Below, piece after piece: positions 1 through 24,776 of a DNA stretch of 52,462 nucleotides. Within the stretch, counting starts at the first letter, position 1. Each line of letters starts with the position of its first letter. Made by a program: the position numbers and the translations under genes. This stretch comes from a virus: positions 1-52,462 of IMG/VR virus record IMGVR_UViG_3300042549_010209; one strand, written 5' to 3'. The notes beneath the pieces are model-generated. The model had not been told where the DNA came from. It saw only the letters and a program-made list of their open reading frames with translations, and searched no databases.

Positions 1-1841
1 GATACACCATCAATATCATATTGAACCAATCTATAGTAATGTAAAATAAATTGATCTATGTTATCCAATTGAGAATATTCAATTTTTTCTGTTGAATTAC
101 CTGCTGATTGGTTTTGTGCTACTTCTCTCCATGTTTCTCCATCTATTGATCTTTCAATACCAAAATAAGATGAATTTTGCTCTGAAGCTGTAGCCCATTC
201 TAAAATATTATATGTTGAATAAGCATTTCCATTGAAATAAAGTAATTCAACTGGTAGTGGTTGAGGTGAAGTAACTGAAATTCCAAATGTACCTACTGTT
301 CCACCATTGTATTCCCATACTCGAATATAAATTGTTTCATATTCAATGAAATCTGTTCTAGAGATAAATGACATAGCTCCATTTGGGGAACTATCATCGT
401 CACATTGTATCTCAACTAACGCTCCAGGAGTACCTCTATAAATTGCCATACCAGCATCAGTTATAACTCCCGTTTGTGTATCAAAATCCAATGAATTCAT
501 ATATTGTGGAACTGTTACTTTAAACCAAACATCTTCTCCAACATATGCAGCACAACTAGGCGTGGATTCTGTTGTAGTAGCAGTAGCATTAACATTTGTA
601 TAAGTTGTATATGTAACTGTATTTGATATAGTTAATGCAATTGCCCCTGATGGATTATCGTTAATTGGGGGTACAGGAGGAGCAGTACATGTCCTAGATA
701 TAGTAAATGTTCCAGTTGTTGAACTGCTAGTTAAATAATGAGCAACATAAATATAATATTGAATTCCTACTGTAGTAATAAATGTATATGTTTCAGTTAG
801 TGTTGAATTATCAATGTTAGTTATATAACTTAATCCGCTACATGATCCAGACATAAATAATAAACTATGATCAAATGTGGTTGTTGATGTAATAGTTGTT
901 TGTTGACCATCACCTGTAAAAGTATACCAAACACCATAACTAGATGACAATGAAAAAGGTGCAGTTTCAACAACGGCCCCTACTGTTGTTCCAGCTAATG
1001 AACTAGTACCACAAGGAATGTTTGTTGATCCAGAACAATAATCATTTGATGGAGGTGTTGGTGGTGGTGGTGGAGTCCAAGTAAATGTTAATCCGGATAC
1101 AGGAAAACATGATGCCGCCGAAGTAAATCTAACTGTATGTGCATTTGAAGTACCTGCAGTAGTACCATTTGGAGCACCCCAATTTGGAGTAGCATCTGGT
1201 ATCGCTGCTGTTAATCTTCTGTTGTTATAGTTTGTATTGGTTGATCCACGTAAACCAACCATTGGTTGGTAGGTAGTACTTGCTACAATAGTAGTCATGT
1301 TACCATAAACAATACGTACAACACCTGTTGATTTATTTATTCTAATTTGGAATGAAAATCTTTCATTTAAAACAAATGGGGTTGTGGTTGAATATCTTGC
1401 ACAGTTTTGCCATTGAAATATAACTTCAGTACCATTATCTTGCCACCTGCGTTCATATACTTGACCGGCAATTGCTGTACTTCGTAAATCCATATTCATA
1501 GCACAAATTACACCTGTAGCAGCTATAGATGATGAAATAGCCCCAGTTGTTCCATTTCCTGTAGTTGTAGAACCAACATTCATCCAAAGGGCACCATCAG
1601 CAGTCATGTTAACTGAAGTAATTATGGTATTGTTAAATGTGAATTGACTCCCAGCGGCTAAAGTGAAATAACTACCATCTGTATCATATGATGTGGCACC
1701 TGATGTAGTAGTTACTAATTGAGTACCACCTGTAATTGCTGTGTATGTACCTGTTGTTTCGCTAAATGTGTAAGAGTTAACTTGGGAGAATAGGTTTCCT
1801 AGAATTAATAGAAAATAAAATAAGATTAATAACTGTTTCAT
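1..1841 (-). CDS. Secreted Bacteroidota-type modular protein, T9SS-cargo-like (3' end outside window)
   Basis: The frame is open from the ATG at 1841 to the window edge (613 codons, no stop), so the C-terminus is missing. It begins with a typical signal peptide (MKQLLILFYFLLILGNLFSQ), then a beta-rich domain, a proline run near residue 255, and two repeated CUB/pre-peptidase-like domains (about 265-385 and 390-525). The second carries DVWFKVTVP, the acidic run CDDDSSPNGAMS and TIYIRVWEYNGG. The last part (LPVELLYFNGNAY, NILEWATASEQNSSYFGIER, HYYRLVQYDIDG) is the module that in Flavobacteriia usually comes just before a type IX secretion sorting domain. By family knowledge such proteins are exported and often surface-anchored. 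In a phage this suggests a cargo gene that changes the infected host surface, or a virion adhesin. The T9SS signal itself is not visible. An AT-rich promoter-like block lies at 1852-1866. Confidence 0.85.
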   Translation of the reverse strand, partial: MKQLLILFYFLLILGNLFSQVNSYTFSETTGTYTAITGGTQLVTTTSGATSYDTDGSYFTLAAGSQFTFNNTIITSVNMTADGALWMNVGSTTTGNGTTGAISSSIAATGVICAMNMDLRSTAIAGQVYERRWQDNGTEVIFQWQNCARYSTTTPFVLNERFSFQIRINKSTGVVRIVYGNMTTIVASTTYQPMVGLRGSTNTNYNNRRLTAAIPDATPNWGAPNGTTAGTSNAHTVRFTSAASCFPVSGLTFTWTPPPPPTPPSNDYCSGSTNIPCGTSSLAGTTVGAVVETAPFSLSSSYGVWYTFTGDGQQTTITSTTTFDHSLLFMSGSCSGLSYITNIDNSTLTETYTFITTVGIQYYIYVAHYLTSSSTTGTFTISRTCTAPPVPPINDNPSGAIALTISNTVTYTTYTNVNATATTTESTPSCAAYVGEDVWFKVTVPQYMNSLDFDTQTGVITDAGMAIYRGTPGALVEIQCDDDSSPNGAMSFISRTDFIEYETIYIRVWEYNGGTVGTFGISVTSPQPLPVELLYFNGNAYSTYNILEWATASEQNSSYFGIERSIDGETWREVAQNQSAGNSTEKIEYSQLDNIDQFILHYYRLVQYDIDGV

Positions 1842-1913: not shown

Positions 1914-2297
1914 TTATCCGTTTATTATTTGCTTGGAACCATCTAAAGTTCCTTTCATTACTACTTTATCGATTCTAGAATCAATGTAGCTGCTTAGATC
2001 AGTACGCACTGTATGGACTGCCTTGCCTGTTTCTTGTCGTGCTTGATCAATTTGGTTCATAATAGTTTTTTCTACCATTGTGATATCACGTCCTGTACTT
2101 TCAAATTTACGCCATACGTTATTGTAATCATCTTTCATAGCATCATACAATTCACTACGTGTACGTTCTAGTGAAGAATTTAAATATTCTTGTTGTTTTT
2201 CTAGTTTATTAATCTTAGCTAAACCTGCAACAATAGAAGCTGATATAAAAGCTGCTACAATCGTAAGCATACCTAAAACAAATGAGGTTATTTCCAT
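1914..2297 (-). CDS. Small membrane-anchored coiled-coil protein
   Basis: 127 residues. One hydrophobic helix spans about residues 5-27 (FVLGMLTIVAAFISASIVAG). A long charged heptad-like helix follows (about 28-110), containing the KLEKQQEYLNSSLERTRSEL stretch. It would sit in the host inner membrane with a coiled-coil domain on one side, resembling small spanin, holin-antagonist or scaffold-like phage proteins, but no family is recognised. It stands alone between the secreted-protein gene and a structured RNA region, and 13-bp inverted copies of AAGTATAGAAGTT flank it at 1875-1887 and 2324-2336. Confidence 0.65.
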   Translation of the reverse strand: MEITSFVLGMLTIVAAFISASIVAGLAKINKLEKQQEYLNSSLERTRSELYDAMKDDYNNVWRKFESTGRDITMVEKTIMNQIDQARQETGKAVHTVRTDLSSYIDSRIDKVVMKGTLDGSKQIING

Positions 2298-3092: not shown

Positions 3093-3111
3093 ATAACTTA
3101 TTTTATTTTAG

Positions 3112-3184
3112 TTGTCCCACAAGGGCTCGAACCTCGACTCTTCTGTACCAAAAACAGACGTGTTGCCAATTACACCATAGGACA
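3112..3184 (-). tRNA. tRNA-Gln (anticodon TTG)
   Basis: 73-nt cloverleaf. The acceptor TGTCCTA pairs with TGGGACA, with discriminator A at 3112. The D arm is GTGTAATTGGCAACAC. The anticodon stem TCTGT/ACAGA closes loop TTTTGGT, giving anticodon TTG. The T arm contains GGTTCGAGCC. CCA is not encoded. Confidence 0.92.
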
Positions 3185-3188
3185 ATTT

Positions 3189-3285
3189 AATAGAAGGCGA
3201 GAGCTTATTGCGATTCGTCTCTCTCGTCCACTTACCGGGTCATAGACGCCTCTATCCGGGTTGTGGCTTCCGCTTGCCTTCTATT
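3189..3285 (-). ncRNA. Candidate compact structured RNA between two tRNA genes
   Basis: A perfect 10-bp helix AATAGAAGGC/GCCTTCTATT (3189-3198 with 3276-3285) encloses GAGAG/CTCTC (3199-3203 with 3221-3225), CCAC/GTGG (3228-3231 with 3263-3266) and hairpin ATAGA-GGCG-TCTAT (3242-3255). This fits a three-way junction. It lacks a T arm and anticodon arm, so it is not a tRNA. Its orientation is inferred from the flanking minus-strand tRNAs. Parts of it (GATAGAGGCGT, then GGTAAGTG) resemble the element at 3454-3590. Confidence 0.5.
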
Positions 3286-3344
3286 TGAAATTACTAAAAC
3301 CCATCTCCGTTGAGGTAAGGAAACTTCATTTCTTGTTTTTTGCG

Positions 3345-3429
3345 TAGTCAGGACAGGATTCGAACCTGTACTAAACCTGGTATACACCATATTAAATTAG
3401 GGACGTGTTACCAATTACACCACCTGACT
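3345..3429 (-). tRNA. tRNA-like gene with aberrant anticodon region (possible pseudo-tRNA)
   Basis: The acceptor AGTCAGG/CCTGACT is perfect, as are the D arm GTGT-AATTGGTA-ACAC and T arm ACAGG-TTCGAAT-CCTGT, with discriminator A at 3345. Between the D and T arms lie about 35 nt instead of the usual 22. I cannot draw a 5-bp anticodon stem: the best options are CCT/AGG with a 20-nt loop, or a mismatched CCCTA/TATGG with loop ATTTAA. The identity is undetermined. It may be an inserted or intron-bearing tRNA, a decayed gene, or a tRNA-like structure. Confidence 0.6.
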
Positions 3430-3453
3430 ATATTGGTAAAGATTTGTAAGCCA

Positions 3454-3590
3454 ACGTATGATTACCCTTACGTCTCGTTTCTTTTGTCTTCGGCACTCTA
3501 CCATTGCAAGTACGCCTTATCTTGCGCCGCCGTTCATGAATTTTCCGAAATTCTAACGGCTGTTACTGTTAACTATCGGAATCAAGTAAC
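3454..3590 (-). ncRNA. Candidate structured RNA upstream of tRNA-like gene
   Basis: No gene fits here. Helices are ACGTA/TACGT (3454-3458 with 3469-3473), GCAAG/CTTGC (3506-3510 with 3521-3525), GCCGTT/AACGGC (3529-3534 with 3555-3560) enclosing GAATTT/AAATTC (3538-3543 with 3548-3553), and GTTACT/AGTAAC (3562-3567 with 3585-3590). It ends 6 nt from tRNA-Met. On the minus strand GATAAGGCGT and the following GGTAGAGTG resemble the element at 3189-3285. Confidence 0.45.
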
Positions 3591-3595
3591 TACTG

Positions 3596-3668
3596 TAGCG
3601 GGGGCCGGATTCGAACCAACGTCCTCGGGTTATGAGCCCGCCGAGAATACCATCTTCTCCACCCCACT
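3596..3668 (-). tRNA. tRNA-Met (anticodon CAT)
   Basis: 73-nt cloverleaf. The acceptor AGTGGGG pairs with CCCCGCT, with discriminator A at 3596. The D arm is GAGA...TCTC. The anticodon loop CTCATAA is closed by GCGGG/CCCGA, and the T arm is GTTGG-TTCGAAT-CCGGC. CAT could be elongator Met or, if lysidine-modified, Ile; I cannot separate these from sequence alone. CCA is not encoded. Confidence 0.9.
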
Positions 3669-6155: not shown

Positions 6156-6309
6156 ATTCTTCTACATTAAAAACAGTTAAAAAATCATCAACAGGCATTC
6201 GCTTAATGTGTGATGCTATTAAAACAGCGTCATCAAAGTTAATTGCTTCAAATTTACCGTGTGGTTCCTTGGTTTTATCTAATTTGTTATAGTAAATATA
6301 CTGTTTCAT
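6136..6309 (-). CDS. Small hypothetical protein, 57 aa
   Basis: I chose the ATG at 6309 because it makes an ATGA overlap with the stop of the glycosyltransferase upstream; the longer reading would intrude about 55 nt into that gene. The protein (starts MKQYIYYNKLDKTKEPHG) has no recognised domain. Confidence 0.55.
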   Translation of the reverse strand: MKQYIYYNKLDKTKEPHGKFEAINFDDAVLIASHIKRMPVDDFLTVFNVEEYERKRK

Positions 6310-7079
6310 AAAATAAATTTTTGGTTTGTATCTGGGTTGTGGTGAATGTAACTTCCCCATTTATATTTTGCGTATTCGTGTCCTGTTTGTTCTGCTTCTT
6401 GTCTTTTTTCTCCATTAGTTGAAATTGAAGCAAAGTGATAGAAGTGACAATTCCATGTTCGAATCATTTTTAAATTTGACATTGAACATTTTAAAAAGAA
6501 ATCCCAATCTGCTACCATCCCCATTTCAAAATTTTCATCCCATCCACCCAATCGAATAAAATCGTATTTGTTCATGAATATAGGCAATGTTGAACCACAT
6601 TCTTCTTTTTTATCACCCGAAGCGTAATGATAATCAAACAACCAAAATTTTTCTAGATCAAATGTTTCTGGTGTTGTTCCTAAATCTTCTATAATGAATT
6701 GTTTGAACATAGACGGATATGGTTCAATTTGGTTTGGTGTTATAACAGCACCATCTTCCCAATCATCTTCTAATGTTGTATCCCAGAATCTAGGAAATAC
6801 ATTATCGTCATTTACAATTAATATTTTGTCGTACCTTGCATTATAAACACCTAAATTAGTTGCTCTACATAAACCAACGTTTCCTGTTAATTCTAGAACA
6901 TTAATATGTTCAGCCCATTTTTCAAGTACCTCTTTGTTTATGTCATAGAAACCATCAACAACAACCATAATTTGGTTTTTGTTTTGTTGTCCTTCAATTG
7001 CAGAACGTAAACATAAATCAAGTACGTCTGGTTCTTTGTATGTTGGTATTATTACTGATATTAAATGTGGGTTTTCCAT
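6306..7079 (-). CDS. Family 2 glycosyltransferase (GT-A fold)
   Basis: 257 residues. The N-terminus ISVIIPTYKEPDVLDLCLRS is the nucleotide-sugar-binding start of GT2 enzymes. GNVGLCRATNLG (about 85-96) and the metal-binding NDDN (about 110-113) follow. The C-terminal WDENFEMGMVADWDFFLKCS matches the acceptor-side ED/W region. It would transfer a sugar in the cytoplasm. It overlaps the upstream glycosyltransferase-like gene, as do most genes in this cluster. The acceptor (virion protein, modified base or host glycan) is unknown. Confidence 0.85.
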   Translation of the reverse strand: MENPHLISVIIPTYKEPDVLDLCLRSAIEGQQNKNQIMVVVDGFYDINKEVLEKWAEHINVLELTGNVGLCRATNLGVYNARYDKILIVNDDNVFPRFWDTTLEDDWEDGAVITPNQIEPYPSMFKQFIIEDLGTTPETFDLEKFWLFDYHYASGDKKEECGSTLPIFMNKYDFIRLGGWDENFEMGMVADWDFFLKCSMSNLKMIRTWNCHFYHFASISTNGEKRQEAEQTGHEYAKYKWGSYIHHNPDTNQKFIL

Positions 7080-7789
7080 TCTTCAACTAGGTTTTCTGGG
7101 GTTACTTTATATAATGGGGCTAACCAATTAGTTTCGCCATGGGTGCTAAATGTATTTAAAGGACATAGTAATATACTACCTTTTTCCCTCAATTCCAAGA
7201 ACATTTGAAAATCATTTGGATGTTTTTCTGAGGTCCATTTTCTTAAAATATCTTCATCGTCTTTTAATGTTTTTACTTTAGCAGCAAAAGTCATAGTTGT
7301 GCTATTAAATATTCCAAATAATTGAGTTTCACCTCTATATATTTTAGTTGGATATCCTCCATCTGAATCTACTTCTGGGTTGCCACCTTGAGATGGGGAA
7401 ATAAATTTATCTGGGTGTAAATAAAGGGTCATGTAAGGTGCTCCTAAATTAAATCCTTCCTCTAATACTTCAGGAGAGCCAGATAAATGTATATAATCGT
7501 TTTCTATAAAATAAATTATTTCATCATCAGTGGATTGAAGTGCTTCATCTAATGCTAAATTAAACGTTCCTGCTCCATGACCTACAGAAACATAATTAAT
7601 ATAATCTCTAGAGATATATTTACAAATCATATTGTTTGTCTCCTCAGATATATTATCTGCTATAATTGACCAATCATATTCATTGTAAGGAAATACTTGT
7701 AAAGCATTTTTTAAACAATTTTCATTGGTGATGTAATCAGGTTTTACTTTATTGTAACCTGCATCTGATATACGGTATATTATTTTCAT
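7061..7789 (-). CDS. Glycosyltransferase-like protein, GT-A type
   Basis: 242 residues from the ATG at 7789, chosen because it makes an ATGA overlap with the methyltransferase stop; a TTG start at 7810 is possible. The fold signature is GT-A like: GHGAGTFNLALDEALQ, then DEIIYFIENDY (a D/E-rich metal site, about residues 85-95). Later GETQLFGIFNSTTMT and STHGETNWL resemble the acceptor side of phage and bacterial polysaccharide transferases. The family is not certain. Confidence 0.65.
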   Translation of the reverse strand: MKIIYRISDAGYNKVKPDYITNENCLKNALQVFPYNEYDWSIIADNISEETNNMICKYISRDYINYVSVGHGAGTFNLALDEALQSTDDEIIYFIENDYIHLSGSPEVLEEGFNLGAPYMTLYLHPDKFISPSQGGNPEVDSDGGYPTKIYRGETQLFGIFNSTTMTFAAKVKTLKDDEDILRKWTSEKHPNDFQMFLELREKGSILLCPLNTFSTHGETNWLAPLYKVTPENLVEEWKTHI

Positions 7790-8490
7790 AAAGTTTTTAT
7801 AATGTAACAACCTGCAGGTAACCCTGAATCATCATTGGTATGTCTAGAGTTGATATTTAATAATTGGTCTGTTACAGGATGATTAATAAATTCAGGTAAA
7901 TTTCTTTGTTTGAAGAATGTTTTAATAGCATCTAAAGTTTCATATAAACAAGAATCATCAAAAATTATATATCCTCCGGGTTGTACTTTATCATATAGCT
8001 CTTCTAAGGTTTCTAATGTGGCAGAATATGCGTCTACATCAATTCTTAATAGTGAGATTTTTTCTATTCCAGAAGTTGGTAAAGTATCTTTAACAAATCC
8101 TTTCAAAAATTTAATTCTTTCTTCATCACCTAAACCATATGTTTTAAAATGGGATTGAACTTCTTCTAAACTAATAGCTAATGGACCAACAGCATTATGA
8201 GTAACATGATTTGTATGTCTTTCTCTATCATAACTATGTTTAGCTATTTCAACTGGTTGGAATCCTTCATATGAATCACATACCCAAATGTTTTTATCCT
8301 GGAATATGTAACTTAAGAATATTGAAAATCCACCTCTCCAAACCCCACATTCTACTACATCACCCTCTACCTCAGATATTTTAGGATAATGTTTGAATAT
8401 TGTTTTGAATTCGTCAGGACGAACCATTGTAATTTTATTGTCAATAAGATCTTGAACTAGATCTTCATAAGTTGTAATTGTTTTTTCCAT
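7786..8490 (-). CDS. TylF/macrocin-type O-methyltransferase
   Basis: 234 residues. DVVECGVWRGGFSIFLSYIF (about 44-63) is the SAM-binding loop of the TylF family, followed by WVCDSYEGFQP. LLRIDVDAYSATLETLEELY and PGGYIIFDDS (about 146-180) supply the conserved metal-binding acidic residues. In antibiotic and lipopolysaccharide pathways these enzymes methylate sugar hydroxyls using SAM. In this glycan cluster it probably caps or decorates a sugar. Confidence 0.85.
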   Translation of the reverse strand: MEKTITTYEDLVQDLIDNKITMVRPDEFKTIFKHYPKISEVEGDVVECGVWRGGFSIFLSYIFQDKNIWVCDSYEGFQPVEIAKHSYDRERHTNHVTHNAVGPLAISLEEVQSHFKTYGLGDEERIKFLKGFVKDTLPTSGIEKISLLRIDVDAYSATLETLEELYDKVQPGGYIIFDDSCLYETLDAIKTFFKQRNLPEFINHPVTDQLLNINSRHTNDDSGLPAGCYIIKTL

Positions 8491-8495
8491 TTTAT

Positions 8496-9383
8496 TTATA
8501 TATTATATTTATTTTTTAACCATTGATAACAATCATTTATAAATGTTTGTGTTTGATCTAAACTTTGTTTTTTTAGATCTTTAACTAAATTTTGTACTAG
8601 AGGAAGGGTCGATACAGCCCAATCTAAATCTTCTTCTCCATATGCTATTCCATATTTTAAGGTAGGAAAACCTTTTCTCCAATCATCCTTTTCTAATCCT
8701 TGTGAAGGAACTACTATTACTATACATCCACACAATGCTGCTAAAGTTGCAATGAATGTTTTGTTACTATAACATATAAACCTTTCAGAATTATTGAAAA
8801 TAGAAACTAAATAATTAATTCTATCTTCTGAGGAAAGACTGTACATATTATCTAAGCACGTGTCATCATCATTGTGAAGTTTGTTTTCTTTAGTTATAGG
8901 GATACCTTTTGTATAATAACAATTACCTTTTCTAGGTAAATTGTAATTTTGAAAAATATCTAAATCAACATCTATAGCTATTAGTTGCCCATCTACGTTT
9001 TGGTTGTTTAGTGTATTAAAATAATCTACAAATTTATATACTTTATCTTTGGGGGAGTATAAAGAAACTTGATTATTCATCAACCATCGTATTTTATTAT
9101 CTATACCCAATATGCTTTGATTGAGATAATTTTGATATGTATGTTCACCGTCTCCTGATGGATAAACAATTATAGTATTTTCTTGAGAATATTCCAATTC
9201 TGTTCCCCAAGGTATAGGGGTGCTAGTATAATTTGATTTAGTAGAGTCTGCATATATGTAAGAATTTTCTCCTAACAAATTTATATTATGAGCTAAATTA
9301 TGACATACCATAGAACCTCCTATATAATCTACATATGTTGGGGTAGGGGAAAATACTATAAAATTTATATTAAAATTATTCAT
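8496..9383 (-). CDS. GT-B-type glycosyltransferase-like protein
   Basis: 295 residues from the ATG at 9383, which shares one base with the upstream stop (TGATG). The N-terminus FNINFIVFSPTPTYVDYIGG plus a following MVCHNLAHNI matches the N-terminal Rossmann domain of GT-B enzymes. ERFICYSNKTFIATLAALCG and VPSQGLEKDDW (about 200-235) look like the nucleotide-sugar domain. It is somewhat short for GT4 (usually 350 or more). Confidence 0.6.
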   Translation of the reverse strand: MNNFNINFIVFSPTPTYVDYIGGSMVCHNLAHNINLLGENSYIYADSTKSNYTSTPIPWGTELEYSQENTIIVYPSGDGEHTYQNYLNQSILGIDNKIRWLMNNQVSLYSPKDKVYKFVDYFNTLNNQNVDGQLIAIDVDLDIFQNYNLPRKGNCYYTKGIPITKENKLHNDDDTCLDNMYSLSSEDRINYLVSIFNNSERFICYSNKTFIATLAALCGCIVIVVPSQGLEKDDWRKGFPTLKYGIAYGEEDLDWAVSTLPLVQNLVKDLKKQSLDQTQTFINDCYQWLKNKYNI

Positions 9384-10168
9384 CAATCTTGATATTTCTT
9401 ATAAAAACGTTTATCTTCTGGTTGGTACCATTCATTTAATGAAGATGGTACACGAGAATAATATCCTAATAATTGTTGGATTTCGGGAGTATATGAATCC
9501 ATTTTATTATATCCTAGAGCTCTTGGGTAATCAAGTAATTGTTTCATAAATGATTTGCTTACTGTAAATGGAATAGCTCTTCTATTAAGTTGGGTTGTGT
9601 TTGGAGCAGATGAATGCCATATGTTAGCATTGAATATTAAAATATCTCCTCTTTTCCCGGTAGCTTGGATAGCATTATTAAAAAATTCTTCATCTGTTGG
9701 TTTTCTTTCTTCTAAATGAGAACCTGTAAGAAGATAAGTCCCGCCGTTTTCAATAGTAAAATCATCTACCATAATTAAACAATTAAGCATAATAGGAAAA
9801 TCACCAGAATAAAATCTTAAGTCACGATGTACTATAGCTGAAAAGTTAGGTTGGTTGGGTAAATTATTTAAAGCACTAAATGAGTTTAAGATACATTTAC
9901 TATGAAAAAAATTATCTTGTAATGATTGAATAAATTGATTTTCAATTAAAGTTTGTAAAAATTCAATAAATATTGGGTTGCTTAATAAAACATGAAGTGC
10001 AACTCCACCTGAGTTAATGTCATTGTTATTGTTTAATTGAATACTTCTATGTTCTAAAAATGCTTTATCCATTTCATCCGATAACAAATTTAACCACCTT
10101 TCATCTATTTGATTACGAATAATGGTGTAACCTTGTTCTTTAAGTTCTTGTGATTGTTCTTTTGTCAT
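9383..10168 (-). CDS. Phytanoyl-CoA dioxygenase (PhyH)-type Fe(II)/2-oxoglutarate oxygenase
   Basis: 261 residues. The iron-binding set is visible: VHRDLRF (HxD, about residues 118-124) and the distal His in NIWHSSAPN (about 189-197), followed by the Arg for 2-oxoglutarate (LNRRAIPF). ENGGTYLLTGSH is the family turn motif. These enzymes hydroxylate or oxidise small substrates. With a methyltransferase and glycosyltransferases on either side, sugar oxidation is the likeliest job; DNA-base oxidation is an alternative. Confidence 0.8.
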   Translation of the reverse strand: MTKEQSQELKEQGYTIIRNQIDERWLNLLSDEMDKAFLEHRSIQLNNNNDINSGGVALHVLLSNPIFIEFLQTLIENQFIQSLQDNFFHSKCILNSFSALNNLPNQPNFSAIVHRDLRFYSGDFPIMLNCLIMVDDFTIENGGTYLLTGSHLEERKPTDEEFFNNAIQATGKRGDILIFNANIWHSSAPNTTQLNRRAIPFTVSKSFMKQLLDYPRALGYNKMDSYTPEIQQLLGYYSRVPSSLNEWYQPEDKRFYKKYQD

Positions 10169-10830
10169 TTTAAGAATTTTTCAAATTTCTTTCTACTCCT
10201 GATTATTTTTGCTGGGTTTCCATAAGCTAGAACATTATCTGGAAGAGATTTAATGACTAAACTTCCTGCTCCTATTACTGTATTTTCTCCTATTTCTATT
10301 CGATCTAAAACAGTTACTCCTAATGTGATTGCTGAGAATTTTCCTATGGTTACGTATCCTCCAGTAATTGAACCTGCTGATATGCTAGCAAAATCATGAA
10401 TGATATTATCATGTTCTACTTGGGCTCCAGTAGCAAAAAATGTAAAATTACCGATTTTAGCTTTAGGGTTGAAAACACACCCAGCCATTGCTACTATCCC
10501 AAACCCTAGTTCTGTAGTATTTCCTATAACAACTGAAGGGTGAATTGCATTTACAAAAATAAAATCTGGGATGAGATTAATGATTTGTTGGGAAACTAAA
10601 TATCTTGATCCATTGTCTCCTATAGAAATAACTCCACCATATATATCATATTTTAAAATTATTTCTTTTAAATCTTCTTGTCTCCCTAAAATTTTATACC
10701 CGAATCTTTCACTATCTATATCATGTACCGAATCAATTATACCTACAATATTATATTTTTTTTCTTTTTCAATAATATCTATAGTATAATGAGCTTGATT
10801 ACCACCCCCAAATAATATTATATTTTTCAT
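10165..10830 (-). CDS. NeuD/PglD-like sugar O/N-acyltransferase
   Basis: 221 residues. The N-terminal Rossmann-like segment IILFGGGNQAHYTIDIIEKE is the PglD/NeuD nucleotide-sugar pocket. The C-terminal half is a left-handed beta-helix of hexapeptide repeats (VIGNTTELGFGIVAMAGCVF, then IGENTVIGAGSLVIKSLPDN). His in QVEHDNIIHDFASIS matches the family catalytic His. It probably acetylates the amino sugar made by the adjacent aminotransferase. It overlaps both neighbours. Confidence 0.85.
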   Translation of the reverse strand: MKNIILFGGGNQAHYTIDIIEKEKKYNIVGIIDSVHDIDSERFGYKILGRQEDLKEIILKYDIYGGVISIGDNGSRYLVSQQIINLIPDFIFVNAIHPSVVIGNTTELGFGIVAMAGCVFNPKAKIGNFTFFATGAQVEHDNIIHDFASISAGSITGGYVTIGKFSAITLGVTVLDRIEIGENTVIGAGSLVIKSLPDNVLAYGNPAKIIRSRKKFEKFLK

Positions 10831-11465
10831 TATCTATTGGATTTAGTATAAATTTCAAATTTAGATAAGTCTGGGTAAGGTAGTTCTAGATCATCGTTGT
10901 GTTTTGGTTTTCCATCCATGTCATAAAATTGATTCATGAGTAAAAACCCACGTGCAGCTAACTCAGGCATCATGTAAAAATTCCAACCCAACATATCAAA
11001 ATTATCATCATGGTATGAACATTCACGTCTACCACTATATCTTGCTCTTTTAAACCATAGATATGCTTCATGACTATCCGTTAATATAGCTCCACCTTTA
11101 GATAATTTGAAATGTTTATACGGACCTGTAAATGAAATACACATATGTGTACCTGGTTTATACATTTCCGAAGTAAAACATAGAGCAGAATCCCATACAT
11201 TAGTAGGTTCTAGTTGATAAGCGCCTTTAATGGTTTTACCTTCAACTGGTTTGAATTTAACTTTAGCTCCAGCATGGATTATTTCACATGGTACCGAAGG
11301 GTATGTACGAGATGGGATAGTTATTTCTGTTCCACATACTTTTTCATACATTAATGCTAAAAATAAAGCATTTGATTGGTTATCTACAGTTACTACATAA
11401 GGTGCTCCTGTATATTCAGCTAAACGTTTTTCAAATTCGTTTGTTATATCATAAACATTTTTCAT
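10830..11465 (-). CDS. DegT/DnrJ/EryC1-type PLP aminotransferase, short form
   Basis: 211 residues against about 370 for the family. The large-domain parts are present: EFEKRLAEYTGAPYVVTVDN (start), PSRTYPSVPCEIIHAGAKVK (substrate side), and SFTGPYKHFKLSKGGAIL with the likely PLP-binding lysine near residue 130. The usual C-terminal small domain is absent: the frame ends cleanly 4 nt into the acyltransferase gene. It could work as a minimal dimer, partner with a host subunit, or have a different activity. Confidence 0.75.
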   Translation of the reverse strand: MKNVYDITNEFEKRLAEYTGAPYVVTVDNQSNALFLALMYEKVCGTEITIPSRTYPSVPCEIIHAGAKVKFKPVEGKTIKGAYQLEPTNVWDSALCFTSEMYKPGTHMCISFTGPYKHFKLSKGGAILTDSHEAYLWFKRARYSGRRECSYHDDNFDMLGWNFYMMPELAARGFLLMNQFYDMDGKPKHNDDLELPYPDLSKFEIYTKSNR

Positions 11466-11488
11466 AACTTAAATATATATAATTAAAT

Positions 11489-12340
11489 TTAATTTTCCAA
11501 ATTTTTATCTATTATTTCAAACATTTCTTTTGGTTTTTCATGTCCTATGAAATGAATTACTTTAGATTTTTTCAAATATTCCATATCGATCCAATAAGGA
11601 AAAACATAATACTCTTGGGGGTTCAAAATTTGGTGAGTTGGAGAAAGAGCATTCATTAATGAATGAAATGATTGTTCCTGAGTATCAATTGTGGTTCTTT
11701 CCCACCCAGTTTTTTCAGATCCATCTTCATTGTATATCCCTGAGAAGTCAAAACATGCTAAAAGCATATTGAATGTGGATGGATTCATAAATTCATCAAA
11801 TATTTTTAAATCAATTCCTTGAAAACCAGCATTTATTCCTACATTTGGATACTTAATTATATCTTGTTGAAATAAGTTAGATAATTGTTGTGCTAAAGAT
11901 TTATCACATCCTGGGTTAGCTGGTTCAGTTATGCTAAATGGGGTTTTAGTTTCTAGGCATGTTTTTAGTTGATCTAAATCATTGCTATTAAATAACACAT
12001 CATATTCTATATTTAAAACATAATCATAACTGAATACTCTTCTTAGGTAATGATTGATTAAGATATGGTAGAAATGGACAAAATTAGGGATATTAGAAAT
12101 AAATTCTTCGTTTCCATACTCACTATTTTTTAGATAGTTACCCATATCTTCTTTAGAGTACCAAAAACATTTATATGGTAATTCATCAATTTTTTTAGAC
12201 CATTCATCTTCATAATCATGTTGGTCCAAAATAACATGAAATTCAAATTCCAAATTAGGAAAATGTTTTTTTAATTGGAACATAGTATAATATTCCATTT
12301 TCCCTTTTTTATGCCAAAGACGAGCTACAGGTATTTTCAT
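11489..12340 (-). CDS. Putative glycosyltransferase
   Basis: 283 residues. VARLWHKKGKMEYYTMFQLK at the start and YDYVLNIEYDVLFN (about 120-133, acidic pair in a GT-A-like strand) suggest a nucleotide-sugar transferase. NVGINAGFQGID (about 177-188) and KVIHFIGHEKP near the end fit a metal-binding His at the C-terminus. No family can be named. It makes an ATGA overlap with the reductase gene upstream. Confidence 0.6.
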   Translation of the reverse strand: MKIPVARLWHKKGKMEYYTMFQLKKHFPNLEFEFHVILDQHDYEDEWSKKIDELPYKCFWYSKEDMGNYLKNSEYGNEEFISNIPNFVHFYHILINHYLRRVFSYDYVLNIEYDVLFNSNDLDQLKTCLETKTPFSITEPANPGCDKSLAQQLSNLFQQDIIKYPNVGINAGFQGIDLKIFDEFMNPSTFNMLLACFDFSGIYNEDGSEKTGWERTTIDTQEQSFHSLMNALSPTHQILNPQEYYVFPYWIDMEYLKKSKVIHFIGHEKPKEMFEIIDKNLEN

Positions 12341-13230
12341 TTTGTAAAATATTCGTTTAAGTATTCATGTAAACACACTTTCCAATTTCTCATATAATTT
12401 CTATCCAAATCATTTAATGATTTATTTATTAATTTTTCTGAGTATGGGCGTGGGGCGAAGTATTCTGTTTTAAAATAGTCACTATCTACTTTATGTACTG
12501 TTAATCCTAAATTAAGATATTCATTTATAGCTACAGCGGTTTCATATCTACTAGCTTCACCTTGACTTACCATATTATATAGTCCGTATGGAAGTTCTTC
12601 TTCAATATGTCTTAAAATGGATGAAGCAAAATCTTTAGTATAAGTAGGTACTCCTAACTTATCATCAACCACAAATAATTCTTTAACACCTGATTTGACT
12701 TGTTTCATTATTTTATTAACGAATTTTTTATCTTTTTCAGGTCCACCTCCCATCATCCATCCAGCTCTGAATATCCAGTATTTAGGGTAGTCTTGGTTTA
12801 ATAGAAGTTGTTCAGTAAAATATTTACTTTTTCCATAAGCACTTAAAGGATAAGGTTGATCTTCTTCAGTATAAAATTCTTTATCATTACCAAATATACC
12901 GGCAGTACTTATGAAAACATATGGTATATTTAAATCTTTAGCTAAATTAAATAAATGCATAGCAGCAATTGTATTTGTTGAATAACAATCATCTTTTTCT
13001 TGCTCACAATATTCTAAATCTACTAAAGCAGCAAAATTTAATATTATATCTGGTTGGTATTCTTTAACTAGGTTAGCAGTATATTCAATATCTCTAATAT
13101 CACACCATTTAACATTTTCTGAAGTTTCTTTATCTGTTAAGAGGTAATTTTGAGTATCTGTTAGGTTTTGTAAAGTAGTACCTAACATTCCATTAGCACC
13201 AGCTATAAAAACCTTTTTATAGTTTGTCAT
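12337..13230 (-). CDS. RmlD-like dTDP-4-dehydrorhamnose reductase (extended SDR)
   Basis: 297 residues, the usual RmlD length. IAGANGMLGTTLQNL (about 9-23) is the NAD(P)-binding GxxGxxG. DIILNFAALVDLEYCE and YGKSKYFTEQLLL (YxxxK, about 133-145) are the reductase core. GVPTYTKDFASSI matches the RmlD motif. By family it reduces a dTDP-4-keto-hexose to a deoxysugar. No RmlA, RmlB or RmlC is in the window, so substrate may come from the host. Confidence 0.88.
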   Translation of the reverse strand: MTNYKKVFIAGANGMLGTTLQNLTDTQNYLLTDKETSENVKWCDIRDIEYTANLVKEYQPDIILNFAALVDLEYCEQEKDDCYSTNTIAAMHLFNLAKDLNIPYVFISTAGIFGNDKEFYTEEDQPYPLSAYGKSKYFTEQLLLNQDYPKYWIFRAGWMMGGGPEKDKKFVNKIMKQVKSGVKELFVVDDKLGVPTYTKDFASSILRHIEEELPYGLYNMVSQGEASRYETAVAINEYLNLGLTVHKVDSDYFKTEYFAPRPYSEKLINKSLNDLDRNYMRNWKVCLHEYLNEYFTK

Positions 13231-13840
13231 ATAAATCGTTTTGTTTCTCTTGTTTACTTATTGTTTTTGGATGATTTAGAGCAAAGTATTCTACATCGGG
13301 CATAGCGGTATATGTTTTAAAACCATCTAAACGCTCATGTACTTTGTTTACCCATTGAATCTCCGGTTTATTTTTCCAAATACGCCATTGGTAATCAGGC
13401 CAATTAACCCATCCCGCATCATTTACTCTCCATCCCCATTTTGCAATATGTTCGGGAGTTAAACCCTCTACTGTGTTTACTCTTGGTACCATAAAAACAT
13501 CTATGTCTTCATTTTCAGCTAGTACATCAGGTAAAACCGCTATTAGGTTTTCATTTGGCATTTCATCGGCATCAATTTGGAATATATGATCACCACTGCA
13601 CAGACTGGATAGTTTATTTTTCCAGTCTGCGAAATGTTTGTTGAATTTTCCTTTATGCCAACTAAATTCTCCATTAATGGAGTGAGTTCGCAGGAATAAT
13701 TCTATCTCCGGGTCACCATTTACTTCATCGTATAGTATTACTATGTTGTCTTGGATACGTTTGTGCTGAAGTAAAAAGCGCACTAAACGTTGAATTTCTA
13801 CAAATTCATTACAGACTGTAATTGCATAACTTATTCTCAT
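13217..13840 (-). CDS. Family 2 glycosyltransferase, compact
   Basis: 207 residues. ISYAITVCNEFVEIQRLVRF begins the GT2 domain, and FQIDADEMPNENLI (about 92-105) supplies the DxD-like DAD motif. The C-terminal WRIWKNKPEIQWVNKVHERL is the region seen in SunS- and LgtF-like GT2 proteins. It overlaps the RmlD gene by 14 nt. Confidence 0.82.
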   Translation of the reverse strand: MRISYAITVCNEFVEIQRLVRFLLQHKRIQDNIVILYDEVNGDPEIELFLRTHSINGEFSWHKGKFNKHFADWKNKLSSLCSGDHIFQIDADEMPNENLIAVLPDVLAENEDIDVFMVPRVNTVEGLTPEHIAKWGWRVNDAGWVNWPDYQWRIWKNKPEIQWVNKVHERLDGFKTYTAMPDVEYFALNHPKTISKQEKQNDLYDKL

Positions 13841-13872
13841 GTTTTTAATATATGAAACCTTTTTTAAATATC

Positions 13873-14340
13873 CTACTTGTCTTGAAATATTCCAATATGA
13901 TCTAAAGCCTCTATATAATCACGTTCAGGGTATACTTTCATATTAGCCATATCCATTTTATATTCCATAAATTCACCGGGTTTACCTGGGATTGGATGAT
14001 TTGGTCGGTCTTCTTCTGAAAGTTTAATTGATTTTACAGCTGCCCATCCCCAATTTGAAGCATTTCTTCCGTTTGCAAATATCATCCCCAATTCAGGTTC
14101 GTTAATTGTATTTGGAATCCAAGTTAAACCTGTTTTTTCATCTACCCAAGCTAAATCTTTATACAACTCAGGTAACGTTTGCATTTGGGCTTCATAAAAA
14201 TCCTCACCTTCTTTCATTAAGCTGTTAGTCCAATAACCACAACTTAAACTTAGGTAATTTGAAATGTCAGGTGTTACTTGTGTTTTATAACATAAATCCC
14301 CTCCTGATTTAGGGCATTGAATTATTTCTTCGTGTTGCAT
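13873..14340 (-). CDS. Hypothetical protein in glycan cluster
   Basis: 155 residues. Cys pairs near the N-terminus (IQCPKSGGDLCYK) hint at a metal-binding knuckle. The rest (GLTWIPNTINEPELGMIFAN, then GWAAVKSIKL) is not recognised. It starts 1 nt inside the end of the upstream glycosyltransferase gene, so its expression is tied to that enzyme. Confidence 0.6.
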   Translation of the reverse strand: MQHEEIIQCPKSGGDLCYKTQVTPDISNYLSLSCGYWTNSLMKEGEDFYEAQMQTLPELYKDLAWVDEKTGLTWIPNTINEPELGMIFANGRNASNWGWAAVKSIKLSEEDRPNHPIPGKPGEFMEYKMDMANMKVYPERDYIEALDHIGIFQDK

Positions 14341-15632
14341 TATGCTTCTACTTTTTTAAGTTTAGGTAATTCGATTTTTTTCAATTGAGGTAATTGCAAT
14401 GGTACTTGTTTTGGAAATTCAGGTATTCTTTCATTGAAAACACTATTTAATTTCTCTTTCATGTTTTCAAATGAGAATTTTGATCTTGAATGGAATCCTT
14501 GACGTTTTGCTTTTTCAAGATATGGTTTATAGTTGTCAAATACATCTTTCAAATAATGTCCTATATGTCCATGATCAACAGAAAACCATTGTGCTTCTTT
14601 CATTAACATGTTGTTGGCTGCACTTGGATGAACTTCAGTTAATGTTCCTTGAAGTAATGTAGTGAATTCTGGGTTTAAATAATCAGTATGTCCACTCCAA
14701 TTTGTTGTAATTATTGGTTTGTTTACCATAGAGAATTCAAGTAACGGACGACCAAAACCTTCTCCTTTAGTTAAATTAACCATTGCTTTAACTTTAGAGT
14801 GGTTATATATCTCATTCATCTCCCCATCTGTAAATTCACCATGAAGTAAATATACATTAGGTAAATGGGTTGATTTACATGATTCTTTAATAGATGTAAT
14901 TTTTTTCAATATCTCATCTCTATCCATATATGAAGAACCTACTTGAGATGTTTTTAAGATTAATGCTGGTTTTTTAGTTTTGTTTTTGAATGTTTCAAAG
15001 AACGCTTTAACTAGTAAACCTACATTTTTTCTATCCTCATTTATTTGCCCTTGCATCCAATGTCCTACAAATAGGTAAGCAAAATCTTCCTTAATTGAAG
15101 ACAAATCAAAATCAGATTTAACAGGTTTGTAAGTATTAACGTCTGCTCCTTCAAATATTACTTCGCTATTTCCTTTCCATTCAATGAATCCCATTGATTG
15201 GTTTGTTTGTTGGTCGCGTTTTTCAAATTTAGAACTTTTCAACACATTAATTGTGTGATTTGATGAACCTAATATTAAATCCATTCTACTACAACCTTCT
15301 ACCCATTCTGCAGGTGCTATTGTTGTTTCAATACCAGCTGTACATCCAATGTTATATTTTCCAACTTTTTGAAATTCATTTGGAACCGTAATTTGCATCC
15401 AAATTTCTGGTTGAGATGGTAATTGTGGTGAATTTAACATGTGTTTAGTTAAAAATGACCATTCTGGATTGTTTTTGATGAATCCTTTAGGTGTTGCACC
15501 CCATCGTTGAGGTAGGATTTTTACATCATATCTATTTAATTCAATAATCGCTTTAACGATGTCGCGAGAACGTGCTCCATAACCACTATATGTGTCAATC
15601 GGGCAACTAATTATAAATGTTGGTAAGCTCAT
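14340..15632 (-). CDS. GT-B glycosyltransferase (GT4-like)
   Basis: 430 residues. SCPIDTYSGYGARSRDIVKA is the donor-independent N-terminal start of GT4 proteins. VGHWMQGQINEDRKNVGLLV and the C-terminal LTKGEGFGRPLLEFSMVNKP (about 288-307, ExxxxGRPxxE motif that grips the nucleotide sugar) are diagnostic. A lysine/proline-rich tail follows (residues 400-430). It lies 1 nt from the next glycosyltransferase. Confidence 0.85.
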   Translation of the reverse strand: MSLPTFIISCPIDTYSGYGARSRDIVKAIIELNRYDVKILPQRWGATPKGFIKNNPEWSFLTKHMLNSPQLPSQPEIWMQITVPNEFQKVGKYNIGCTAGIETTIAPAEWVEGCSRMDLILGSSNHTINVLKSSKFEKRDQQTNQSMGFIEWKGNSEVIFEGADVNTYKPVKSDFDLSSIKEDFAYLFVGHWMQGQINEDRKNVGLLVKAFFETFKNKTKKPALILKTSQVGSSYMDRDEILKKITSIKESCKSTHLPNVYLLHGEFTDGEMNEIYNHSKVKAMVNLTKGEGFGRPLLEFSMVNKPIITTNWSGHTDYLNPEFTTLLQGTLTEVHPSAANNMLMKEAQWFSVDHGHIGHYLKDVFDNYKPYLEKAKRQGFHSRSKFSFENMKEKLNSVFNERIPEFPKQVPLQLPQLKKIELPKLKKVEA

Positions 15633-15633
15633 T

Positions 15634-17073
15634 TTAGTATAATAATTCGTGTTTAATTGTATCTTCTTTTATCTCGTTGCAATTGATTAGCTCATATTTT
15701 GAGCGCGGGATCCACGTTGAAAATAATTTATCTATCGCGTCTATTACTCTAGTTCCCATTATTTCTCCGGTAAAACCTGCTTCATTTAATGCCCAAACTC
15801 TTCCTGTTTTACCAAGTTCTTTTCTCATTGTTCTACCCAATGCATATACTTCAGAAATACGAGCAGCTGCATCTTCAGCATTACATCTATCATCCCAAAT
15901 ATAAGGTGTTTTAGGTGAACCTTGAATTGATCGGTTTGTTGGATAAACTGGAAATGCCCAGCAACCATGGTTTTTCAATTTGCCAGTATGGTTTGAAGGT
16001 AATTTTTTAGTTGGTACAAACCAATTTCCATACTCGTCTTCAAATCTCATTTGATCTTGCATTCCACCGGTTACATTTGCTATTACTACAGTTCCTGCTA
16101 AAATTGCCTCTGTAATCGATAGACCCCATCCTTCATTTGAAGTTAACAAGATTTGAGTATCTGCAATGTTATACAAGAAATTCAATTCTTTTGACGATAA
16201 TTTATTTGTTGAATAATAAATTGCATTTGGATAGTCTTGGAACAATATTTTACGTACTGCCTCTAAATCTGTTCCATGTTCACTTACTATTTCGGTATGT
16301 AAAACCATAGCACATTTTTGAGCTTTCTCTTTAGTTAATGTATCCAAAAAATACCTAAATGCAAGCATTGTATCCGGGATTTGTTTTCTTCGAATGTTTC
16401 TTGAATTGAAAAACACTACGAAATCTTTTTCTTGACCTGCAAACAATTGATTTCTAAACGCCTCTAATTCTTTTAATTCGTTTTCGTTTTCAATTGGATA
16501 GTAATGGTTTTCATTTAAACCATGAGGAACATACTCTATAATTTTTCCTTCTGTTTTATCACCCAATACCAATTCATTAATTAATTTGGTTTGTTTTGAA
16601 ATAGCTAACAATGCATCACACGATTCATAAAATGCTTTGTTGTACAACGGTGCCGGATAATCATCCCAAATGTTCAAGTAAATAATTGGAATGTTTTGTC
16701 TAATTTCATTTTCAATCATAAACAACCACTCAAAATACCTTGGATCCGTGATCAACATAATTGCATCTGGTTTTTCCATTTCAATCAATTGTCTAATTAA
16801 ATCAGCATCTCCATATCCGTTTGACGGATATACTACAACTGAAGAATCTGTTATACCTGCGTTTGTGTTTGTGTCCGCTGATAGATCTAGGCGTTTGCCT
16901 TGCTCGGGGTGGTTAATTGCTCCGGCAATGTTAACCCAATTAAAATGTTGTACTGTATTAAGTACAATTTCACGTGCTACTGTTGCTACACCCGAATGTA
17001 CTCTAATGTCGTCGCAAATTAAAAGGATTTTTTTCCTTTCGTTTTGTGGTAAATAACCAAATTTTTCTTTCAT
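15634..17073 (-). CDS. GT-B glycosyltransferase (GT4-like), first gene of the glycan cluster
   Basis: 479 residues. KILLICDDIRVHSGVATVAR begins the N-terminal domain. FNSRNIRRKQIPDTMLAFRY (about 250-269) and NEGWGLSITEAILAGTVVIA (about 319-338, the E-x7-E nucleotide-sugar motif) define GT4. It heads a tightly packed run of about 13 genes ending near 6306, with a short 37-nt gap before it. Confidence 0.87.
   Translation of the reverse strand: MKEKFGYLPQNERKKILLICDDIRVHSGVATVAREIVLNTVQHFNWVNIAGAINHPEQGKRLDLSADTNTNAGITDSSVVVYPSNGYGDADLIRQLIEMEKPDAIMLITDPRYFEWLFMIENEIRQNIPIIYLNIWDDYPAPLYNKAFYESCDALLAISKQTKLINELVLGDKTEGKIIEYVPHGLNENHYYPIENENELKELEAFRNQLFAGQEKDFVVFFNSRNIRRKQIPDTMLAFRYFLDTLTKEKAQKCAMVLHTEIVSEHGTDLEAVRKILFQDYPNAIYYSTNKLSSKELNFLYNIADTQILLTSNEGWGLSITEAILAGTVVIANVTGGMQDQMRFEDEYGNWFVPTKKLPSNHTGKLKNHGCWAFPVYPTNRSIQGSPKTPYIWDDRCNAEDAAARISEVYALGRTMRKELGKTGRVWALNEAGFTGEIMGTRVIDAIDKLFSTWIPRSKYELINCNEIKEDTIKHELLY

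Positions 17074-22856: not shown

Positions 22857-24776
<1,920 letters not shown>

What the first reader, a model, noticed from the sequence alone, without database searches (positions are those of the whole stretch)
1..1841. Phage-borne secreted protein with flavobacterial T9SS-cargo architecture
The frame has a signal peptide, two CUB/pre-peptidase-like domains with the DVWFKV / CDDDSS / IYIRVWEY signature, and the LPVELL...YYRLVQYDIDG module that in Flavobacteriia precedes a T9SS sorting domain. Phages rarely carry complete secreted host-type proteins. It could be a cargo gene that remodels the host surface, blocks superinfection or serves as a diffusible adhesin, and it points to a Bacteroidota host. 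The C-terminus is outside the window.
Basis: partly seen in the sequence, partly recalled or inferred. Interest (0 to 1): 0.85.

Follow-up and report, generated by a model that had tools for sequence, protein, structure and literature searches.

The report
Phage-borne surface protein with short sorting tail
The cut-off gene at the window's left edge belongs to a family of secreted, adhesin-like proteins carried by large T4-type phages of Bacteroidota, and its relatives end in a short, previously uncatalogued tail that also closes secreted proteins of the likely hosts, so these phages probably borrow the host's own protein-export machine to coat the infected cell.

Summary
A 613-aa minus-strand frame (3..1841) has a Sec signal peptide, two tandem PPC-like beta-sandwich domains and an "LPVEL..YYRLVQYDIDG" Fn3-like module, and it runs off the left edge. 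It is phage DNA: an independent 45-kb contig (L002) repeats the gene and its flank, and dN/dS is 0.14. Complete relatives in many viral loci show the missing end. It is not a type A (TIGR04183) sorting domain but a conserved ~37-aa tail (KKIVKYVNLLGQEV..GVIIEIYEDGTMRKIIR-stop).

The same tail closes unrelated secreted proteins of Crocinitomicaceae-type bacteria; in all 118 distinct ORFs with a hit it ends within 6 aa of the stop. In most phages the gene sits just behind the T4-type major capsid gene, in an accessory slot shared with homing-endonuclease-like genes. In one 229-kb phage that slot also holds two genuine type A T9SS cargo genes.

Best reading: phage-encoded cargo for the host type IX secretion system, with a short, uncatalogued sorting signal. 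T9SS dependence and the surface role are inferred. Phage-borne type A T9SS cargo was reported before (Cryophage, PMC7468147), so this is a new variant of a known kind.

The parts
3..1841 (-). Phage gene for a secreted multidomain adhesin-like protein; 613 aa seen, about 51 C-terminal residues lie beyond the window's left end
   Evidence: the missing length is read from L002
1782..1841 (-). Sec signal peptide, about residues 1-20 (MKQLLILFYFLLILGNLFSQ)
   Evidence: sequence; equivalent N-termini in complete relatives (crude heuristic plus reading by eye)
1056..1781 (-). N-terminal region, residues ~21-262, conserved in phage relatives, fold not resolved (low pLDDT). A fn3 module present in L002 just after it (95 aa) is missing here
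681..1055 (-). PPC-like beta-sandwich domain 1 (residues 263-387)
   Evidence: ColG CBD s3b, Z 12.4, rmsd 2.0, 103 aligned
261..662 (-). PPC-like beta-sandwich domain 2 (residues 394-527; DVWFKV/CDDDSS/IYIRVWEY)
   Evidence: ColG CBD, Z 11.2 (1nqj, residues 400-525); GBD_T9SS_assoc E 0.045, below cut-off
3..257 (-). LPVEL..YYRLVQYDIDG Fn3-like module, incomplete; in complete relatives it leads directly into the short C-terminal tail, which lies outside the window
   Evidence: Fn3-like, Z about 10-11 over model residues 1-99
1914..2297 (-). Neighbouring upstream gene, 127 aa, function unknown
3111..3668 (-). Three tRNA genes upstream of the gene; this part of the genome, not the capsid-gene slot used in most relatives, is where the window's lineage keeps the gene

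Best explanation
The gene encodes phage cargo for the host's type IX secretion system. Shown: a Sec-type signal peptide at the N-terminus; swappable extracellular modules in the middle (PPC-like here; fn3, CUB, GEVED, PKD, Ig in relatives); an Fn3-like LPVEL module and, in complete relatives, a ~37-aa tail at the extreme C-terminus that also closes secreted chromosomal proteins of Crocinitomicaceae-type, T9SS-bearing bacteria. Inferred: after Sec export the short tail is recognised by the T9SS in place of a classical CTD, through its GxxIxxYxDGSxxK end, which resembles the D/E motifs and the conserved near-terminal Lys of type A signals; the protein is then put on, or released from, the infected cell's surface, late in infection in the phages where it sits behind the capsid gene. 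Most likely use: coating or shielding the infected cell (receptor masking or superinfection exclusion, about 1 in 3), otherwise adhesion of infected cells to surfaces or neighbours.
For: Tail at 0-6 aa from the stop in 118/118 distinct ORFs with a hit, none internal. Same tail on unrelated secreted proteins of bacteria that also have at least 95 type A CTD matches each; all 23 tail-bearing genomes of a 295-genome sample encode SprA. Signal peptides in the complete phage proteins. In a 229-kb phage contig the short-tail gene lies in one island behind the capsid gene with two bona fide type A cargo genes (a subtilase with SprB repeats, and a SprB-repeat protein). In L176 a type B (TIGR04131) cargo gene sits immediately upstream. 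Middle modules vary while both ends are kept. Purifying selection, dN/dS 0.14. Literature: the last 22 residues of one type A signal (motifs D and E) suffice for secretion, and the conserved near-terminal Lys matters (PMC10202324; PMC10994853).
Against: No TIGR04183, PF18962 or TIGR04131 match in complete relatives. No detectable profile homology of the tail to type A CTDs. Co-occurrence with SprA carries little weight because 286 of 295 sampled genomes have it. Secretion, localisation and late expression were not measured. The window's own C-terminus is not in the data, so its tail is inferred from relatives, chiefly L002.
Confidence: 0.7

Rival explanations
1. Virion component: an Ig/PPC-rich decoration or fibre protein of the capsid, encoded next to the major capsid gene.
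For: In 37 of 64 locus rows the gene starts within 1.5 kb, mostly ~110-170 bp, behind the T4-type capsid gene. Ig-like domains on phage heads are common (own knowledge).
Against: Signal peptides in complete members, which a capsid protein assembled in the cytoplasm would not need. The slot is optional: only a minority of close capsid relatives with enough downstream sequence have the gene there, others have homing-endonuclease-like or unrelated genes. In a relative of the window's lineage the gene is far from the capsid gene (capsid at 0.4-2 kb, gene at 70 kb of G038).
Confidence: 0.12
2. Sec-exported but T9SS-independent: the tail is a structural beta-element, and the protein acts in the periplasm or is released at lysis.
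For: No curated T9SS domain is matched. The tail is predicted as a few short beta-strands behind the Fn3 module.
Against: The tail is shared by unrelated proteins with no LPVEL module and always sits at the extreme C-terminus, as sorting signals do. It shares an island with real T9SS cargo.
Confidence: 0.15
3. Chimeric assembly or recently captured, functionless host gene.
For: Host-type protein at a contig end.
Against: Independent contig with the same junctions; 30 viral loci from a first scan and 175 matching stretches from a second; dN/dS 0.14.
Confidence: 0.02

Closest known systems
Cryophage type A T9SS cargo genes (Bellas et al. 2020, PMC7468147)
   Same: Phage-encoded, Bacteroidota host, variable cargo presumed to be secreted through the host T9SS; the authors also suggest competition or superinfection exclusion
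   Different: Cryophage cargo carries classical type A sorting domains and includes glycoside hydrolases in a 76-kb phage. Here the tail is short and unlike type A, one copy per genome as a rule, in T4-type phages, mostly behind the capsid gene
T9SS-domain ORFs near the head genes of crAss-BACON cluster 2 phages (PMC6949934)
   Same: T9SS sorting-domain proteins encoded beside the head section of Bacteroidota phages
   Different: Different phage group and BACON modules; the passages read do not describe a short tail
T9SS type A CTD (TIGR04183 / PF18962)
   Same: C-terminal, portable, follows the same LPVEL Fn3-like module in host proteins; conserved Gly and near-terminal Lys
   Different: About 37 aa instead of ~70-100 aa, no PNP motif, no HMM match, no profile homology detected
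Bacterial PPC / collagen-binding domains (ColG s3a-s3b)
   Same: Predicted fold of both middle domains, in tandem
   Different: Below Pfam cut-offs; ligand unknown

Membership tests
T9SS type A sorting domain (TIGR04183/PF18962) | Profile match above the curated cut-off at the C-terminus | tested here: not met
   Complete relatives L010, L002, L029, L018: no match; window record: no match. The window protein itself is cut off before its end
T9SS type A sorting domain (TIGR04183/PF18962) | Homology by profile-profile comparison | tested here: not met
   hhalign A4 vs A5: probability 3%, 14 columns; the type A profile had only 8 sequences
T9SS type B sorting domain (TIGR04131) | Profile match above the curated cut-off | tested here: not met
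   No match in complete relatives; a neighbouring gene in L176 does match
T9SS type C CTD (cl41395) | Sequence match to ChiA-type CTD | tested here: inconclusive
   No Pfam or NCBIfam match was reported, but no type C sequences were compared directly
T9SS substrate in general | Sec signal peptide plus conserved signal at the extreme C-terminus | tested here: met
   In relatives:
T9SS substrate in general | Export depends on SprA/PorV | not testable with these tools
   Needs a bench experiment
T9SS substrate in general | Occurs only in T9SS-bearing organisms and their phages | tested here: inconclusive
   23 of 23 tail-bearing genomes have SprA, but so do 286 of 295 in the sample
Phage-encoded T9SS cargo (Cryophage type) | Encoded on phage DNA | tested here: met
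   T4-type terminase, portal, protease and capsid genes on the relatives' contigs; window record is viral and has phage DNA polymerase, virion and endolysin-type genes
PPC domain | Beta-sandwich fold like ColG CBD | tested here: met
   Z 12.4 and 11.2, from a model of moderate confidence
CUB domain (PF00431) | Profile match | tested here: not met
   No match for the window protein; CUB occurs in relatives L132 and L155

The most novel reading that the evidence does not exclude
The ~37-aa tail is an uncatalogued class of T9SS sorting signal (beside types A, B and C), used by Crocinitomicaceae and other Bacteroidia, and large T4-type phages have captured it to display one swappable adhesin on each infected cell.
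Probability: 0.55. Interest if true: 0.75.

Novelty: new variant of a known kind. Interest (0 to 1): 0.6.

Why it matters
It would show that phages of Bacteroidota routinely use their host's type IX export machine, and it supplies a compact signal that could test how little of a CTD the translocon needs. The one-copy design with fixed ends and a swappable middle also makes a clear prediction about surface display during infection.

Tried and rejected
Leftward extension of the window itself is impossible: the record ends at base 1. Type A CTD search of complete relatives: no hit. Profile homology of tail to type A: none found. SprA co-occurrence as a test: uninformative because SprA is near-universal in the sample. 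Capsid-slot gene as core virion gene: rejected because the slot is variable and the gene lies elsewhere in the window's lineage. Foldseek/VIA on the LPVEL-plus-tail model found Fn3 domains, essentially over residues 1-99; no T9SS CTD structure was among the rows shown, and the tail itself was barely tested. Structure of residues ~15-260: low confidence. Cryophage record MT820023 is not held in the collections. Signal peptides were judged by a crude rule that missed a few clear cases. Literature searches for phage-borne T9SS signals gave two relevant papers.

Full report
WHAT IS THERE. The minus-strand frame 3..1841 codes for 613 residues from an ATG and runs off the left end of the record. The record is a 52,462-base virus contig and nothing lies to its left. 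The window also holds a phage DNA polymerase, virion proteins, an endolysin-like gene, GroEL and thymidylate synthase, and no T4-type capsid gene.

NOT AN ARTEFACT. A scan of viral contigs found 30 loci encoding relatives. The nearest, L002 (91% identity in the best segment, 45-kb contig), follows the window in the same order across the gene's start and on to base 6306, so a joint near 1850 is excluded without reads. Against L002, dN is 0.064 and dS 0.456 (ratio 0.14), i.e. purifying selection. The window copy lacks one fn3 module (95 aa) that L002 has, and the last 51 residues lie beyond the edge.

DOMAINS. Residues 1-20 form a typical signal peptide. Residues 263-387 and 394-527 are predicted as two PPC-like beta-sandwiches, matching the tandem collagen-binding domains of ColG (Z 12.4 and 11.2), from a model of moderate confidence in that part and poor confidence before it. 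From 529 on comes the LPVEL module. Its complete version in L002, tail included, folds confidently (pLDDT 92.8) and matches Fn3 domains over residues 1-99.

THE MISSING END. Complete relatives share a tail straight after the LPVEL module: KKIVKYVNLLGQEV-x(4,5)-GVIIEIYEDGTMRKIIR-stop. Pfam and NCBIfam do not recognise it. It is not confined to phages. A bacterial scan and whole-genome searches find it in Brumimicrobium, Fluviicola, Crocinitomicaceae and other Flavobacteriales genomes, 1-7 copies each in the ten genomes first searched, beside at least 95 type A matches each (that search scored at most 150 candidates per genome). It is found on proteins with the LPVEL module and on others without it that show no evident similarity to each other. 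Across all fetched loci, 118 of 118 distinct ORFs with a match carry it 0-6 residues from the stop and none internally. That is the behaviour of a sorting signal. A 634-kb uncultured phage carries it too (L347).

WHERE PHAGES KEEP IT. Of 32 viral records searched, chosen because they hold the gene, 31 have exactly one match and one has a second, weak one. In 37 of 64 locus rows the gene starts within 1.5 kb downstream of a T4-type major capsid gene, in the order terminase, portal, protease, scaffold, capsid, gene. In 10 more the capsid gene is upstream but not within that distance, in the cases looked at with another gene between. The other 17 have no capsid gene in the locus (identities of the head genes from PHROGs, except the scaffold, which is named by position). 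A reverse test starting from the capsid gene found the tail gene downstream in 15 of 79 loci examined, many of which are too short to tell; among those with more than 3 kb downstream it is a minority, and homing-endonuclease-like and other genes fill the slot. So it is an accessory gene, not a core capsid gene. In the window, L002 and L168 it lies elsewhere, in L002 and L168 before a metallophosphatase-like gene, and the capsid gene of L168's contig is about 70 kb away.

COMPANY IT KEEPS. In L317 (229-kb contig) the capsid gene is followed by a subtilase with SprB repeats and a type A sorting domain, a SprB-repeat protein with a type A domain, a further secreted-looking protein, and then a short-tail protein. 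In L176 a type B sorting-domain protein precedes the short-tail gene. Subtilases also sit between capsid and short-tail gene in L108 and L134. Genuine T9SS cargo therefore shares islands with short-tail proteins, although type A domains are otherwise rare in these phages (1 of 36 records above cut-off).

INTERPRETATION. Signal peptide, swappable binding modules and a shared C-terminal tail fit a phage-encoded substrate of the host's type IX secretion system. The literature makes a short signal plausible: the last 22 residues of one type A CTD suffice for secretion, and a near-terminal Lys contacts PorV (PMC10202324; PMC10994853). The tail's invariant or near-invariant Gly, Tyr, Asp and Lys could play that part; this is inference. 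Formal membership in types A or B fails here, type C was not compared directly, and homology to type A was not detected. Phage-borne T9SS cargo was described before with type A domains (PMC7468147) and noted near head genes of crAss-BACON phages (PMC6949934).

LIMITS. No expression, secretion or host data. Host assignment rests on tail similarity and on the company of T9SS genes. SprA co-occurrence is uninformative. Counts of loci include near-duplicates.

Noticed in passing
window 6306-17073 (-): Cluster of sugar and glycan genes: GT2 and GT1 glycosyltransferases, TylF-type methyltransferase, PhyH dioxygenase, PglD-type acyltransferase, RmlD reductase; suggests that the phage alters surface or other glycans.
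   Followed up: partly
window 22857-24488 (-): Phage-encoded GroEL chaperonin (phrog_5725, E 2.4e-149).
   Followed up: no
L317:8015-12748: Island behind the capsid gene of a 229-kb phage: subtilase with SprB repeats and type A T9SS domain, a SprB-repeat protein with a type A domain, a further secreted-looking protein, and a short-tail protein.
   Followed up: yes
L108:1927-3399 and L134:2536-3990: Subtilase (PF00082) genes with signal-peptide-like N-termini between the capsid gene and the short-tail gene.
   Followed up: partly
L347 (LR745206.1, 634-kb uncultured phage): Huge phage with an ORF ending in the same short tail (LVKRVNTLGQEVDEYQKGLIFEIYEDGSVKKKYISE).
   Followed up: no
window 3111-3668 (-): Three tRNA genes (Gln, Met and one with an unclear 2-base anticodon call).
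   Followed up: no
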